A stretch of DNA of 35,147 bases from Candidatus Babelota bacterium. Lineage in GTDB: Bacteria > Babelota > Babeliae > Babelales > Vermiphilaceae. Below, piece by piece: positions 28,180-35,147 of this stretch. Under the pieces are notes generated by a model. The model was not told the origin of the DNA and did no database searches. It saw only the letters and a program-made list of their open reading frames with translations. Numbering within the stretch: the stretch's first letter is position 1; each line of letters opens with the position of its first letter. The translations under genes were made by a program, and so were the position numbers. Where the stretch lies: the NCBI GenBank assembly GCA_013287855.1, contig JABDCY010000005.1, forward strand, positions 19,338-54,484. The letters run 5' to 3'.

Positions 28180-28419
28180 ATGAGTAAAAAAGACAAATTA
28201 ATCCAAAAGATTTTTGCGAATGCTCAAATTTCCTATGAGGATGCAGAAAGTATATTGCTTAGTCTGGGGTTCGCTTATACTGTGACAGGATCCCACCACG
28301 TTTTTAGAAAACTGGGCTATTTTAGAAATATTACCCTAAAAAAGAGATCACAGTTATTGACGTATCAAATTAAAATGTTAAAAGAGGTATTAATTTATCA
28401 TGGCTACTTACAAAACTGA
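28180..28419 (+). CDS. hicA: HicA-like mRNA interferase toxin
   Basis: The 79-aa protein of the HicA dsRBD-like fold shows AESILLSLGFAYTVTGSHHVFRK with the catalytic His in the GSH motif (His39), and ITLKKRSQLLTYQIKMLKEVL as the closing strand and helix. Toxins of this type cleave mRNA. It has a slightly long N-terminus (about 20 residues before the first helix motif). It overlaps the antitoxin gene by 20 bases. Confidence 0.9.
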   Translation: MSKKDKLIQKIFANAQISYEDAESILLSLGFAYTVTGSHHVFRKLGYFRNITLKKRSQLLTYQIKMLKEVLIYHGYLQN

Positions 28420-28798
28420 GAAAAAAACTGCTATCAAAAAAGACATAGATTACTATCTTGATTTGCCTTGGACATATACAATTGAAACGACCAAAGAGGA
28501 TGGCGATCTACTCTATATAGTTTATGTAAATGAACTTCCTGGAGTTGCAACAGATGCGCCGACATTACCTGAAGCGATGACATTAATAAAAGATGCTATG
28601 CGCGGAATTTTTAAGTTGTATCTTGAGCAAGGTGAGGAAATTCCCGAACCTATGCAGGAAGAACAATTCAAGGGCAACATAGCGTATCGCACTACAAACA
28701 GACGACATCTTTTGCTAGCCAAAGAAGCAAAAAAACGCGATGTATCCTTAAGTTCTCTGATTGATGAATGCATAGATAAAACTTTGCAAAGAAAATAA
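28400..28798 (+). CDS. hicB: HicB-like antitoxin
   Basis: The 132-aa protein has an N-terminal degenerate RNase H-like HicB domain (LYIVYVNELPGVATDAPTL, EAMTLIKDAMRGIF) and a C-terminal ribbon-helix-helix segment (RRHLLLAKEAKKRDVSLSSL and on). It should neutralise HicA and repress the operon. Its stop overlaps the start of the amidase gene (TAATG), which is unusual for a TA pair and ties the downstream gene to it translationally. Confidence 0.9.
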   Translation: MATYKTEKKTAIKKDIDYYLDLPWTYTIETTKEDGDLLYIVYVNELPGVATDAPTLPEAMTLIKDAMRGIFKLYLEQGEEIPEPMQEEQFKGNIAYRTTNRRHLLLAKEAKKRDVSLSSLIDECIDKTLQRK

Positions 28799-29996: not shown

Positions 29997-30099
29997 GTAG
30001 ATATGTTGGTATATTCAATCTTAGAAATTGGTCACGTGCAATTGGGGAAAATAATGTAGTATAATCATGTGCTCAAGTATTAAGCTACGTGGAGATTTT

Positions 30100-30420
30100 A
30101 TGATAACGCCAGAAATAATTGAAGAAGTTAAGCGGCGCCTTGTTGATGTCTATCAGCCAGAGACAATTTATCTCTTTGGTTCATATGCCTGGGGACAGCC
30201 TGACGATGAGAGCGATTTAGACTTATTGGTAGTGGTACGTGACTCTAAAGAGAAAAGCCATAAACGTAGTATTGTTGGCCGTCGCGCGCTCTGGGATCTC
30301 GATATTCCAAAAGATATTATGGTGTTTACCCAAGATGAATTTAATGCGCGAATTACAGACCCAACATCATTGCTGTATAAAATAAAGAACAACGGCAAGG
30401 TGATTTATGCCCGGAGTTAA
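30100..30420 (+). CDS. MNT-type nucleotidyltransferase
   Basis: The 106-aa minimal nucleotidyltransferase has YLFGSYAWGQPDDESDLDLLVVV, with Gly-Ser at 27-28 and metal-binding Asp39/Asp41, and a third acidic residue in LDIPKDIMVF. The ATG at 30100 (GGAG five bases ahead) is preferred to an ATG at 30067. It pairs with the downstream HEPN gene (14-base overlap). In studied MNT-HEPN pairs the MNT protein adds nucleotides to the HEPN toxin and silences it. Confidence 0.88.
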   Translation: MITPEIIEEVKRRLVDVYQPETIYLFGSYAWGQPDDESDLDLLVVVRDSKEKSHKRSIVGRRALWDLDIPKDIMVFTQDEFNARITDPTSLLYKIKNNGKVIYARS

Positions 30421-30820
30421 AGATTGGATTGCTAAGGCGACTGGTGATCTTAGAGCAGCAAAAAAACTCATAAAAGACGATGATTATACGCTTGACATGG
30501 CAGCTTATTCTACTCAACAATCTGCTGAAAAATCGCTCAAGGCCTACCTGATTTTTAAAAAACAAGCAATTCCCAGAACACATGATGTTGAAAAATTGTT
30601 AATGGATTGCATTAAACATGATAATACGTTTGATATTCTGCGAAAGGATGCTGAGCTTTTATCTCCATACGCCACATACACACGCTATCCAGACGATCGT
30701 TTTAATGTAGATCGCGAAGAAGTTGTTGGCGCAATTAACTGTGCCGAAAAGATCTTAAAGTTTGTAAATGCAAGAGTAGCATCAACTGAAAAAAATCCGC
30801 AGCTAGGTCTATTTGAGTGA
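30407..30820 (+). CDS. HEPN-domain protein
   Basis: The 137-aa four-helix HEPN protein has DWIAKATGDLRAAKKLIKDDD, MAAYSTQQSAEKSLKAYLIFK, IPRTHDVEKLLMDC and a late YATYTRYPDDRFNVD. The clear R-x4-6-H RNase motif of HepT-type toxins is not evident, so RNase activity is uncertain; it belongs to the broader HEPN family usually encoded beside MNT genes. It ends with a short polar tail. Confidence 0.87.
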   Translation: MPGVKDWIAKATGDLRAAKKLIKDDDYTLDMAAYSTQQSAEKSLKAYLIFKKQAIPRTHDVEKLLMDCIKHDNTFDILRKDAELLSPYATYTRYPDDRFNVDREEVVGAINCAEKILKFVNARVASTEKNPQLGLFE

Positions 30821-30938
30821 GAGCATAGCTACTCACATCATGCGGCATTAAGATACCAAGAAACACTTGACTGCTTCGAGAAATTTATGCTGTGTTTTTG
30901 ATATTGGTATATGTTTCTTTTATTTAAAAAGGAGAAGT

Positions 30939-31154
30939 ATGGGATTTCTTAGTTTTTTGCCAGTAGTGTATCAAGGCGCGATTATTATGGCAGCCGGTAT
31001 TGTTCTGCTACTCCACACACTGGGACTTTTTGAAAAAGGACTGCAATATTTAATCATTGCCGGCGCAATTTACATGATCATCCATGGATTCATTAAAATG
31101 GATGGCTTTGCCAAACTGCAGAATTTATTTACCCGCAAGTCTGATAAAAAATAG
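30939..31154 (+). CDS. Small two-helix membrane protein
   Basis: The 71-aa protein starts at the ATG at 30939 with AAGGAG just ahead; the frame open from 30867 is not favoured. Two hydrophobic helices (VVYQGAIIMAAGIVLLLHTL and LQYLIIAGAIYMIIHGFI) are joined by a short polar turn, and the tail is MDGFAKLQNLFTRKSDKK. A terminator follows directly. The last 18 codons recur as a decayed fragment at 31741-31797. Function unknown. Confidence 0.72.
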   Translation: MGFLSFLPVVYQGAIIMAAGIVLLLHTLGLFEKGLQYLIIAGAIYMIIHGFIKMDGFAKLQNLFTRKSDKK

Positions 31155-31389: not shown

Positions 31390-31725
31390 ATGAAGATACA
31401 TAAAATACATTTATTTGGCTTGTTAGCTCCCTTCGCATTAGTAACGTCTATGCAGGCTGTAATTACAATGCTTCAATACACTACAACCTTTGCAGGAACC
31501 ACAACCCCATGTAACGTGACACTATATACAGATGATACAGGAGGAGTACATGCTTATAAACGCACTGATGCAGCAAGTAATACCATTGTTGCCTACGGCG
31601 GAAGTAGACTAATTTCTCAATCGGGTGCCATGGACAACCAAGCAAAAAACCAGCACTATAAAGCTGACTACGACAGACTAGAAGCTGCGCATGCGCAACA
31701 AAATACTCCAGGAGAACGAGAATAA
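31390..31725 (+). CDS. Small secreted protein, array member 1
   Basis: The 111-aa protein has a signal peptide (MKIHKIHLFGLLAPFALVTSMQA) nearly shared with four genes downstream. The mature part of about 88 residues looks beta-rich (MLQYTTTFAG, CNVTLYTDDTGGVHAYKR) and ends in a helix with DYDRLEAAHAQQNTP, matching the family C-terminal pattern (Y-x-x-L-E-x-x-Y/H). The ribosome site AAAGG precedes the ATG. The family has no function I know; export and paralogy suggest a role outside the cell or at the host interface. Confidence 0.7.
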   Translation: MKIHKIHLFGLLAPFALVTSMQAVITMLQYTTTFAGTTTPCNVTLYTDDTGGVHAYKRTDAASNTIVAYGGSRLISQSGAMDNQAKNQHYKADYDRLEAAHAQQNTPGERE

Positions 31726-31740
31726 AAAAGCGTTTGTATA

Positions 31741-31797
31741 ATGGATGGTCTTGAAAGATTACGAAAATTAGTGAACCGCAAACCAGAAAAAAAATAA
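31741..31797 (+). pseudogene. Decayed copy of the small membrane protein's 3' end
   Basis: It translates as MDGLERLRKLVNRKPEKK followed by TAA, against MDGFAKLQNLFTRKSDKK and a stop at the end of the 30939-31154 gene. It is followed, as in the parent, by a terminator hairpin. The membrane helices are absent. Confidence 0.7.
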
Positions 31798-31817
31798 TCG
31801 TTAACTATTAATATAGT

Positions 31818-31855
31818 AAAAAACCCTATCAATCGACGGGGTTTCCTCTTTTTGA
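31818..31855 (+). terminator. Terminator copy after the membrane-protein fragment
   Basis: AAACCC (31821-31826) and GGGGTTT (31838-31844) can pair, followed by CCTCTTTTT. It corresponds in position to the terminator at 31163-31190. Confidence 0.6.
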
Positions 31856-31930
31856 CCCTTATCAAAAAAATTTTTATCTGTCTCATATGGCTAAAAGTCC
31901 GATCTACAGCGACTTTTTAATCAAAAACTC

Positions 31931-31960
31931 TTGCTTTTTACCATATAAATTTTCTATTAT
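31931..31960 (+). promoter_or_regulatory. Promoter for array members 2-4
   Basis: TTGCTT (31931-31936), 18 bases, TATTAT (31955-31960). The surrounding sequence (AAAACTCTTG ... TTCTATTATTAAATTA) is repeated before member 5 at 33300-33329, which supports a real function. Confidence 0.6.
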
Positions 31961-32045
31961 TAAATTAGCAACAGTGTAAAAATATCCAAAAATCATTTAT
32001 TAATAAAAACAGGGAGAGCTTCTTATTGAAAGAAGGAGTCTTCAT

Positions 32046-32393
32046 ATGAAGATAAACAAAATACATTTATTGGGATTGTTGGCTTTATTTGCTTTAATGC
32101 CTTCGATACATTCTCAAGTCACTCACACAGTTAACACACAGCGTTTTCCTGACCCTAAAGCTAGACTCGGCTTTGTAGACATTACATATGACATGTATAG
32201 CAAAGCCCAGGGCAACGACAAGTTAATTGCTCAAAAGATACTTCAACAAAATCAGATCGATGCTTGGCTGCAAGACTCTAGCACACACCTTATAAAGAAA
32301 ATGTATGGCACTGATTCGCCACAATCAGTAAAAACCTTTAATCAACTTCAAAATGAATATCAACAGCAACAGGCGAGCGGGCCACAGCAGTAG
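32046..32393 (+). CDS. Small secreted protein, array member 2
   Basis: The 115-aa protein has the signal peptide MKINKIHLLGLLALFALMPS. The mature part is more helical and polar than in the other members (QGNDKLIAQKILQQNQIDAW). It ends VKTFNQLQNEYQQQQASGP, which keeps the family pattern of a C-terminal helix followed by a Gln-rich tail. AAGGAG lies seven bases before the ATG. It is the first gene of a likely three-gene transcript. Confidence 0.72.
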   Translation: MKINKIHLLGLLALFALMPSIHSQVTHTVNTQRFPDPKARLGFVDITYDMYSKAQGNDKLIAQKILQQNQIDAWLQDSSTHLIKKMYGTDSPQSVKTFNQLQNEYQQQQASGPQQ

Positions 32394-32430
32394 CGCGATA
32401 ATACAAAGAAAATAATAAAGGAGATAATTC

Positions 32431-32736
32431 ATGAAGATAAACAAAATATATCTACTGGGATTGTTGGCAGTGCTCGTACCTTCAATCAATGGAGCGATTT
32501 CGAAAATCAAAGACAAGCACGGCGTTGATGAACAGAACAGGCCATTTAGCTTAACTAAATACCATGAGGTGTCTGACCTTGGCGATACAACAAAAATTGC
32601 TGGTAAATGGTCCGGTTATGGCAAAGAAGAGTACTGGGCCACTGTAATTAATGAGACTGGTTCCGGTATGAATGAATATGAAGGAGAAGCGGCAAAAGAA
32701 ATATATGATGATCTAGCATCTCGTGAGGTAAGATAA
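32431..32736 (+). CDS. Small secreted protein, array member 3
   Basis: The 101-aa protein has the signal peptide MKINKIYLLGLLAVLVPSIN. The mature part of about 79 residues (AISKIKDKHGVDEQNRPFSL, then YHEVSDLGD and WATVINETGSG) ends EAAKEIYDDLASREVR, the family helix. It aligns best with member 5 in the stretch before the central strands (Gly/Asn-Arg-Pro-hydrophobic-Leu). AAAGGAG lies seven bases before the ATG. Confidence 0.72.
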   Translation: MKINKIYLLGLLAVLVPSINGAISKIKDKHGVDEQNRPFSLTKYHEVSDLGDTTKIAGKWSGYGKEEYWATVINETGSGMNEYEGEAAKEIYDDLASREVR

Positions 32737-32767
32737 CGACAACAACGAGGAAGCAGGGGAGAAACTT

Positions 32768-33127
32768 ATGAAGATTAATAATTTATTTGTAGGACTATTA
32801 ATAGCCTGCGTTTTTATGCACACAATAAACGGAGTCCAAAAAATTAAACAAAAAATTCAAAAAGCTGCAGTTATTTTCCCAGTACCCTATTCTAGTATTA
32901 GATTGCAAGTAACAAATTATTACGATCCAAATAACAAAAAGGGAGCTATGCAGATAATAGATCAAATGGGAAAAAAAACAGGATATGTATATACATATTC
33001 GAGCAAAATTACGAATCGTAGCTTAATCTTCAGCGCATTTATGAATGTAATAAGAACAAAACAACCTGCACAATCGTTATATAACACTCTTGAGAATACG
33101 TATAACGGGGAACAAGCAGGGCCTTAA
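32768..33127 (+). CDS. Small secreted protein, array member 4
   Basis: The 119-aa protein has a shortened family leader (MKINNLFVGLLIACVFMHTI). The mature part is basic at first (QKIKQKIQKAAV), then beta-rich with many Tyr (SIRLQVTNYYDPNN, TGYVYTYSSKI). It ends PAQSLYNTLENTYNGEQAGP, clearly parallel to member 5 (AKTLYDSLEQKYVSQANP). GGGGAG lies six bases before the ATG. Its stop is followed two bases later by a convergent decayed mscS end. Confidence 0.72.
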   Translation: MKINNLFVGLLIACVFMHTINGVQKIKQKIQKAAVIFPVPYSSIRLQVTNYYDPNNKKGAMQIIDQMGKKTGYVYTYSSKITNRSLIFSAFMNVIRTKQPAQSLYNTLENTYNGEQAGP

Positions 33128-33128
33128 A

Positions 33129-33235
33129 TTAGCTATGCTGGCCATCTTGCGCATCCCGCATGTACGCTTTTGGTCCAACCATGACGCGCATCGGCTCTGA
33201 AATTTCAATACCATGCTGTCCGATTCTTCAACTTG
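33129..33235 (-). pseudogene. Decayed fragment of the mscS 3' end
   Basis: On the minus strand it reads HGIEISEPMRVMVGPKAYM followed by RDAQDGQHS and TAA. The true C-terminus of the channel gene at 33810 is HGIEISVPMRVMVGPKAYV followed by RDVEEEVKM. Nucleotide identity is about 80% over some 78 bases, with a one-base frameshift just upstream of the His codon. The rest of the gene is absent. Confidence 0.85.
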
Positions 33236-33299
33236 GGAAATTTACTACTGAGATATAGGTAAAAAACCCCTTATTTACGGCCTTTTTTAATAAAAACTC

Positions 33300-33329
33300 T
33301 TGTTTTTTAGGTCATAAATATTCTATTAT
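33300..33329 (+). promoter_or_regulatory. Promoter for array member 5
   Basis: TTGTTT (33300-33305), 18 bases, TATTAT (33324-33329), in the same sequence context as 31931-31960. The two copies share most of about 45 bases. Confidence 0.6.
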
Positions 33330-33403
33330 TAAATTATAGGGTATTAAAAAGGAGTTTTCTTAAATAGGGTGAGTTTTAATTTTTTTATTGAAGGAGTTTT
33401 ATT

Positions 33404-33748
33404 ATGAAGATAAACAAATTATATCTTTTGGGATTGTTGGCAACATCCCTTCTTGTATCGTCAATTAAGTGCGCAGTCATCCGTCAAGAAGAATCTATGG
33501 TTAATCCTAGCGGCCGTCCTATTACTCTAATAACCTATGGCGAAAGGGATGTAACGTCAATGTCAAGCAATCTTTATATAGCAATTAAGAAAACATATGA
33601 TGATACTGGCTCAATAGACTACCAATCAACGGTGTCTATTTACAAAGTGTCTACCGGTATACCTGAAATATTCAAGGATACTGGGCCAGCTGCAAAAACA
33701 TTGTATGATTCATTAGAACAAAAGTACGTTAGTCAAGCAAATCCTTAA
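33404..33748 (+). CDS. Small secreted protein, array member 5
   Basis: The 114-aa protein has the signal peptide MKINKLYLLGLLATSLLVSS. The mature part has GRPITLITYGERD, SNLYIAIKKTYDDTG, YQSTVSIYKVSTG, then the family C-terminal helix AAKTLYDSLEQKYVSQANP. AAGGAG lies seven bases before the ATG. It has its own promoter copy and is convergent with the intact mscS-type gene, across a terminator. Confidence 0.74.
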   Translation: MKINKLYLLGLLATSLLVSSIKCAVIRQEESMVNPSGRPITLITYGERDVTSMSSNLYIAIKKTYDDTGSIDYQSTVSIYKVSTGIPEIFKDTGPAAKTLYDSLEQKYVSQANP

Positions 33749-33809: not shown

Positions 33810-35147
33810 TTACATCTTCACTTCTTCTTCAACATCCCGCACATACGCTTTTGGACCAACCATGACGCGCATAGGAACCGAAATTTCTATGCCATGCTTG
33901 CGCAATTCTTTGACCATAGAAATTCGTACATCGCTGGCGATATCCCATTGCTCGAGCGTGTAATTTGAGCTCAAAAATCCACGCACCAAGAATTCAAACC
34001 CTGCTTGGGTAAAATTCTCAAGTCGAATCACGGGCTTTGGACTTTTGAGAATATATTGATGCTTATCAAGCACTGAGAATAAAATTTGTTTCACTTTTTC
34101 TGGATCTTCTTTGTAACCAACATTAATTACAATATCTTCAAACGCAAAAAATCCTTGTACATAGTTCCAGTTGGTTATCGGCTTGTTGAGCACTTGCGTA
34201 TTTGGCACCACAATGGTGTTGCTATTTCTGCGTCTGATGATCACCGAGCGCGGCGTAATTTTACGCACCACACCCATCGTAGTGTTATCGATCCAAATGT
34301 AATCACCAATCTTGATCGGGCGCTGCACCAAAATAATAAAATAGGCCATAAAATCGCTGATCGGATCTTTGGCAACCCAACCAATAGAAAGTATGAGAGC
34401 ACCGGTTAAGTACAAGACGAGCGAATCGAGCCCCACGCTGCGGAACCCAAGCATGATGGCGGCAATGACAATGAAATATTTGGTGAAGCTGGCAATCGTG
34501 TTCTGCACGCCAGAATCCACCAACAAGAGATCAAAAATGCGGCGCAGCAGAAACCGGTTGACCAGAATGGCGATAATAAAACCAATAAGACAGAAGAATA
34601 AGATTTGGAAAATGGAGAAAATGGTGACCGGTGGCACATCATGACCCAAATACACAATTGTGGTGCCAAGCCAATCATAGACTTCTTTGTACGAAATAAA
34701 CCAGCCCCAAATGCGCGCAATAATGAACATGCCCAGGAGCGCAACTACGGCAAATGATGCCATAATGAAAAGACCATACCAACTCTTGGCGTACACAAAT
34801 CGCTCACGCACCACTTCTTCATCGACCGAGAAGAAGACTTGCGACATGAATTTGCGCAAAATTTCGTACACAAAAAAGAGCGCGCGAATCAACACAACGG
34901 TGTACACGAGACCACGCAGAGCAAAAAGTACCAAGCGGCCAAATCCAACATAGGGATTGCTTAAGATGATGATCGCTACAATGAGCACAAAAATTGGATA
35001 GTAATAACTATCTACCGACTCGTGCAACCATTGCCAAAAAGCGCCGCGGCGTGGAATGAGACTCAACACAAATTCTTTAGTGATGAGCAACATCAGGCAG
35101 AGTTGGAAAATAATAATATTGAGCGCCAATAGAATCGCCGGAAGTTC
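33810..35147 (-). CDS. MscS-family mechanosensitive channel (5' end outside the window)
   Basis: 445 residues are visible and the frame remains open to the right edge (beginning ELPAILLALN), so the start lies beyond; a TTG at 35129 is only internal. Several N-terminal membrane helices are followed by the MscS core. The pore-lining helix region is LGFRSVGLDSLVLYLTGALILSIGWVAKDPISDFMAYF, and the beta domain has RPIKIGDYIWID, MGVVRKITPRSVIIRRRNSNTIVVPN and NWNYV. A cytoplasmic alpha/beta domain ends in HGIEISVPMRVM. These channels release solutes under hypo-osmotic stress. A decayed copy of its 3' end lies at 33129-33235. Confidence 0.92.
   Translation of the reverse strand, partial: ELPAILLALNIIIFQLCLMLLITKEFVLSLIPRRGAFWQWLHESVDSYYYPIFVLIVAIIILSNPYVGFGRLVLFALRGLVYTVVLIRALFFVYEILRKFMSQVFFSVDEEVVRERFVYAKSWYGLFIMASFAVVALLGMFIIARIWGWFISYKEVYDWLGTTIVYLGHDVPPVTIFSIFQILFFCLIGFIIAILVNRFLLRRIFDLLLVDSGVQNTIASFTKYFIVIAAIMLGFRSVGLDSLVLYLTGALILSIGWVAKDPISDFMAYFIILVQRPIKIGDYIWIDNTTMGVVRKITPRSVIIRRRNSNTIVVPNTQVLNKPITNWNYVQGFFAFEDIVINVGYKEDPEKVKQILFSVLDKHQYILKSPKPVIRLENFTQAGFEFLVRGFLSSNYTLEQWDIASDVRISMVKELRKHGIEISVPMRVMVGPKAYVRDVEEEVKM

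What the first reader, a model, noticed from the sequence alone, without database searches (positions are those of the whole stretch)
31390..33748. Tandem array of five small secreted proteins with a shared leader and divergent mature parts
Five genes of 101-119 aa start with variants of MKINKIHLLGLLA, and most keep a C-terminal helix of the form LY-(D/N)-x-LE-x-x-Y plus a polar tail. The mature centres are strongly diverged. A conserved export signal with a fast-changing body in tandem is a pattern typical of secreted effectors, surface antigens or rival-directed toxins. I know no described family that matches.
Basis: partly seen in the sequence, partly recalled or inferred. Interest (0 to 1): 0.75.

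Follow-up and report, generated by a model that had tools for sequence, protein, structure and literature searches.

The report
Tandem family of diverged secreted mini-proteins
An uncultured bacterium from a phylum known to live inside protists carries a private family of at least seven tiny exported proteins that keep the same export tag and the same tail helix while their middles have changed almost beyond recognition; this looks like a host-interaction kit, but its function is unproven.

Summary
Five tandem + strand genes (31390-33748; 111, 115, 101, 119 and 114 aa) share a Sec leader, and all five (not just most) share a C-terminal helix motif [AS]-x-x-[IL]-[YF]-[DN]-x-[LI]. Leader similarity exceeds that of other exported proteins in the window. 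The tail block beats 300/300 shuffles even among members with no clear pairwise homology.

The host is a Ca. Dependentiae (Babeliales) MAG. Two more members (g6, g7) form a second mini-array beside rho on contig C45. No homologue was found in 28 other genomes of the family, the order, GTDB contigs (one query), viral contigs, phages (one query), Pfam, NCBIfam, PHROGs or PADLOC.

AlphaFold gives g5 five antiparallel strands plus the C-terminal helix (pLDDT 75, pTM 0.64) with no significant PDB match. g2 is inconclusive (pLDDT 52).

The cluster sits in a junction conserved in relatives (TM protein >< mscS; 22-122 nt apart in six of them, 2,655 nt here). It contains a second mscS 3' end and a duplicated upstream element, so duplication or recombination built it.

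Best reading: lineage-specific, Sec-exported proteins that probably bind host targets. The effector role is inferred, not shown. It is a new family of a known kind.

The parts
31390..31725 (+). g1, 111 aa exported mini-protein, leader MKIHKIHLFGLLAPFALVTSMQA|VIT
32046..32393 (+). g2, 115 aa, leader MKINKIHLLGLLALFALMPSIHS|QVT; most diverged centre, AF2 low confidence
32431..32736 (+). g3, 101 aa; body homologous to g5
32768..33127 (+). g4, 119 aa; diverged leader MKINNLFVGLLIACVFMHTING|VQK, basic body (pI 9.9)
33404..33748 (+). g5, 114 aa; AF2 model of mature part: five antiparallel strands plus C-terminal helix (pLDDT 75)
31913..31967 (+). upstream element before g2 (promoter-like by eye, not called by the promoter scan), 84% identical to the one before g5
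33282..33336 (+). second copy of the upstream element, before g5
33145..33217 (-). orphan copy of the 3' end of the mscS gene, 84% identical to 33826-33898; dS 0.72, dN 0.07 over 22 codons
33766..33802 (.). 17-bp hairpin between g5 and mscS, terminator-like
33810..35129 (-). mscS-type mechanosensitive channel, N-terminus cut by the contig end; right boundary of the junction
30867..31154 (+). small membrane protein conserved next to mscS in relatives (start probably at the internal ATG near 30939); left boundary of the junction

Best explanation
A lineage-specific family of at least seven small Sec-exported proteins in a Ca. Dependentiae bacterium. Each has a ~22-residue signal peptide ending in a signal-peptidase-I-like site ([IML]-x-[ASGC]|) and an 80-97 residue mature domain: for g5 modelled as a five-stranded antiparallel sheet followed by a conserved C-terminal helix and a polar tail. 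The family grew by tandem duplication and recombination inside a convergent junction (TM protein >< mscS) that is nearly empty in several relatives. The export leader and tail helix stayed fixed while the centre diverged, with mature pI from 4.9 to 9.9. Most likely the proteins leave the cytoplasm by Sec, then the cell by a general route (the type II system described for Babela, or vesicles), and bind different host-protist molecules. Shown: genes, leaders, tail motif, second array, restricted distribution, junction, duplicated mscS end. Inferred: cleavage site, export beyond the periplasm, host binding, diversifying selection.
For: Leader and tail conservation; leader nearly confined to this family: an exact-pattern search of 101 order genomes finds 4 sites here, 2 in one other genus, 1 elsewhere. 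Second array g6-g7. Fold model for g5. Host phylum from AtpA: the seven closest hits are all Dependentiae/TM6/Babeliales, 61-79%, then other phyla at about 50%. Known members live inside protists; 44% of Chromulinavorax proteins carry signal sequences, enriched in ORFans (PMC6561590); Babela's only detected secretion system is type II and secreted paralogue families are read as host-directed (PMC4378268). Junction: stops 22-122 nt apart in six relatives, 2,655 nt here. Leader silent differences 2/8.8 sites for g3-g5 against about 39/55 in the bodies (Fisher p 0.008; g2-g5 p 0.015; g2-g3 p 0.12). Divergent charge.
Against: No direct evidence of secretion past the inner membrane, of expression, or of a host target. 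Exported orphans are the norm in this phylum, so an exported orphan array is not by itself a sign of an effector. Body dN/dS cannot be estimated (dS saturated). The common fold rests on one moderate model of g5; g2 came out at pLDDT 52. T2SS genes were not looked for in this genome, which is 68% complete.
Confidence: 0.45

Rival explanations
1. Periplasmic or envelope proteins with a housekeeping or self-protective role (envelope stress, superinfection exclusion, immunity against exported toxins) rather than host-directed effectors.
For: Only a Sec signal is visible and no lipobox or other sorting signal (sequence); the neighbour is an MscS channel; small beta-rich periplasmic proteins can be protective (general knowledge).
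Against: Absent from all relatives examined, so not housekeeping; no PADLOC, PHROG or phage hit; an intracellular lifestyle should reduce exposure to rivals.
Confidence: 0.25
2. A cassette system: one export leader (and tail) is kept similar by recombination or gene conversion while the bodies are replaced or shuffled, as in antigenic-variation loci.
For: Leader DNA within array 1 is much less diverged at silent sites than the bodies; 5' element and mscS 3' end are duplicated around diverged genes; the mscS fragment diverged as functional coding sequence (dS 0.72, dN 0.07), fitting import from, or exchange with, a related lineage.
Against: Only 13 leader codons and 22 mscS codons; no donor or silent cassettes seen; no second strain of the genus to show swapping; leaders of array 2 are saturated at silent sites, so homogenisation is not family-wide.
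Confidence: 0.18
3. Ordinary fast-drifting paralogues under relaxed constraint; leader and tail persist because they are needed for export and folding, nothing more.
For: Orphan exported genes are very common in the phylum (PMC6561590); g6-g7 show dN 0.46 against dS 1.65, i.e. ordinary purifying selection.
Against: All seven frames are intact, with ribosome sites at the five window genes and conserved tails; pure decay should have broken some.
Confidence: 0.12

Closest known systems
Lineage-specific exported paralogue families of Dependentiae (Babela massiliensis expanded secreted families, PMC4378268; ORFan-rich secretome of Chromulinavorax, PMC6561590)
   Same: Same phylum, Sec signals, no homologues elsewhere, paralogue expansion, probable host interface.
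   Different: Those singled out in the Babela paper are large or carry recognisable domains (ankyrin, Ulp1-like protease, cysteine-rich plus beta-barrel); these are ~80-97 aa single domains with 0-2 cysteines and no known domain.
Leader-sharing tandem array on contig C17 of another genus of the family (L200: four exported proteins of 531-604 aa)
   Same: Tandem, exported, very similar leader MK[VLS]NK[IV]Y[LV]...; leader scores 34-53 with g2, g3, g5, g6 versus 12-34 with control leaders.
   Different: Bodies are large, charged, 47-54% identical to each other and not detectably related to g1-g7; leader and body diverge at about the same rate.
Streptococcus sanguinis PilA minor pilin (7o5y), best PDB fold hit of the g5 model
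   Same: Loose overlap of an antiparallel sheet region (TM about 0.5, E 0.065).
   Different: E not significant; no prepilin leader; 12% identity.

Membership tests
Sec-exported, signal peptidase I substrates | Basic n-region, hydrophobic core, small residue at -1 and aliphatic or small at -3 | tested here: met
   All seven align at M-x-A, I-x-S, I-x-G, I-x-G, I-x-C, L-x-G, M-x-C (sequence reading); no dedicated predictor was available
Bacterial lipoproteins | Lipobox [LVI][ASTVI][GAS]C | tested here: not met
   No match in any of the seven leaders; g5 SIKC and g7 AMHC fail the rule for the residue before the cysteine (sequence)
Type IV pilins / pseudopilins | Class III prepilin leader (G|F-T-L-I-E-type) before the hydrophobic helix | tested here: not met
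   Absent from all sequences, although the top fold hit is a minor pilin at E 0.065
Ankyrin or other known-domain Dependentiae effectors | Recognisable Pfam/NCBIfam domain | tested here: not met
   No family above its cut-off for g1-g7
Polymorphic / contact-dependent toxins | Large carrier plus variable toxin tip and adjacent immunity gene | tested here: not met
   Only ~100 aa proteins, no carrier or immunity gene in the cluster
Phage or defence proteins | Match to PHROGs, PADLOC, phage or viral contigs | tested here: not met
Type II secretion substrates | Export from periplasm dependent on T2SS | not testable with these tools
   Needs an experiment; T2SS genes were not searched for in this genome
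Lineage-specific exported paralogue families of Dependentiae | Exported paralogues confined to a Dependentiae lineage | tested here: met

The most novel reading that the evidence does not exclude
A leader-cassette diversification system in an uncultured intracellular bacterial phylum: bodies are exchanged by recombination behind one shared export leader and tail helix at conserved convergent junctions, giving each lineage its own set of small host-facing binding proteins on one scaffold.
Probability: 0.15. Interest if true: 0.7.

Novelty: new member of a known kind. Interest (0 to 1): 0.4.

Why it matters
Dependentiae are widespread bacteria that live inside protists, with almost no experimentally tractable host-interaction proteins. 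A compact family on one apparent scaffold, with fixed ends and variable faces, gives a small set of proteins to express, solve and use as bait. The conserved junctions (mscS >< TM protein, rho >< tsaD) that hold different exported orphans in different genera give a simple way to find such genes in other genomes of the phylum.

Tried and rejected
Homologues elsewhere: none by profile in relatives, family or order, by g5 in GTDB contigs, or in viral contigs and phages; weak profile hits in relatives (E about 0.001-0.3) are leader-only or partial matches, mostly inside longer ORFs, and were treated as chance. PDB sequence hits to ATP synthase alpha (E 0.02-1.6) cover 28-60 residues and were rejected as chance. 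Foldseek gave nothing below E 0.001. I first read the orphan mscS tail as a neutral clock for accelerated body evolution; it proved to have diverged under purifying selection, so that argument was dropped. The C1 hit (L008) matches only inside a 217-aa open frame and was not counted as a member. A promoter claim for the duplicated element was downgraded because the scan does not call it.

Full report
Observation. MAFFT puts the shared residues in the first 13 positions and in a C-terminal motif. Leaders are homologous: within-family scores average 44.6 against 19.8 with eight other exported leaders of this window. g4 is the weakest. Aligned leaders also share a signal-peptidase-I-like end (aliphatic-x-small), which other exported proteins of this window appear to share by eye (sequence reading).

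Bodies. Pairwise Smith-Waterman with shuffles shows real body homology only for g3-g5 (z 7.8), and for g6-g7 (z 16) in the second array; other pairs are at or near chance. The C-terminal block is nevertheless common to all. The best ungapped 12-mer among g1, g2, g4, g5, g6, which have no clear pairwise homology, scores 199 against 99.9+-13.0 (0/300 shuffles); a second mixed set gives 7/300. Over all seven members it scores 324 against 140+-21 (0/100, inflated by the two homologous pairs).

More members. A five-sequence profile finds two further tandem ORFs on contig C45 (570-884, 899-1213). Independent support: g6 has an exact leader-DNA match (reversed control 0) and the tail block. They lie tail-to-tail with rho. 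Nothing comparable was found in the 28 other genomes of the family, 134 relatives or 101 genomes of the order, nor in GTDB contigs with g5. The genome is a Dependentiae MAG: the seven closest AtpA hits are all from that phylum, best 79% to JAHDWT010000001. That contig's length equals contig C1 of the nearest held relative, G025. The assembly is 68% complete, so more members may exist.

Locus. In relatives the 3' end of mscS faces the 3' end of a small membrane protein, with stops 22, 44, 61, 69, 73 and 122 nt apart in six loci and 256-788 nt in four; in this genome the gap is 2,655 nt and holds the five genes. Inside the cluster is a 73-nt orphan copy of the mscS 3' end (33145-33217, 84% identical to the live copy) and a 55-nt element repeated before g2 and g5. 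The orphan keeps the mscS frame and diverged mainly at silent sites (dS 0.72, dN 0.07, 22 codons). It is closer to the live copy (55/66) than to any relative's mscS (at most 39/66). So the cluster was most likely built by duplication or exchange within the genus, anchored in mscS.

Leader versus body. Within array 1 the first 13 codons differ little at silent sites (g3-g5 2 of 8.8) while the bodies are saturated (38.7 of 55.2; Fisher p 0.008; g2-g5 p 0.015; g2-g3 p 0.12). Between arrays the leader is conserved in amino acids but saturated at silent sites (g2-g6). This points to protein-level constraint on the leader overall and recent homogenisation or duplication within array 1. It does not prove positive selection on bodies. 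In another genus (L200) a four-gene array with a similar leader has leaders and bodies diverging together, so the inverse pattern is not a general rule.

Fold. AlphaFold2 on the five mature parts gives g5 five antiparallel strands plus a C-terminal helix at residues 73-90, pLDDT 74.9, pTM 0.64. g2 reached only 51.6, showing three strands and the helix in similar places: compatible but inconclusive. No PDB or viral match below E 0.001. No Pfam, NCBIfam, PHROG or PADLOC family.

Function. Known Dependentiae live inside protists; Chromulinavorax has 44% signal-bearing proteins enriched in ORFans (PMC6561590), and Babela's only detected secretion system is type II (PMC4378268). With export signals, private distribution, duplication, divergent centres and widely different charge (pI 4.9-9.9), host-directed binding proteins are the most likely role, at about 0.45. 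Periplasmic protective proteins, a recombination-driven cassette system and relaxed drift remain open.

Verdict. A real, apparently undescribed small protein family; by kind, a lineage-specific exported paralogue set like others in this phylum. The unusual point worth follow-up is fixed ends with a variable centre.

Noticed in passing
30067-30820 (+): MNT nucleotidyltransferase plus HEPN pair, a known toxin-antitoxin type; MNT-HEPN and HicAB were both reported for Babela massiliensis (PMC4378268).
   Followed up: partly
28400-28798 (+): HicB-like antitoxin (Pfam E 2.4e-6); I did not look for a HicA partner.
   Followed up: no
L172-L197, downstream of rho: In at least seven relatives rho and tsaD are convergent neighbours; in several others exported orphan ORFs lie between rho and tsaD or next to rho. 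The second array (g6-g7) occupies the same side of rho.
   Followed up: partly
L198:2659-6495: In the nearest relative (G025) three tandem exported paralogues of 409-434 aa (28-32% identical) lie beyond a nitroreductase-like gene downstream of mscS.
   Followed up: partly
L200:1575-8807: Four tandem exported proteins of 531-604 aa in another genus with a leader very like that of g3/g5.
   Followed up: partly
L009:121-420: Palindromic repeat-like sequence (GTCATCCTGAACTTGTTTCAGGATCT and complements) upstream of the second array.
   Followed up: no
C5 right end (window 35147): mscS is cut by the contig end; relatives have open frames of up to about 1,200 aa there.
   Followed up: no
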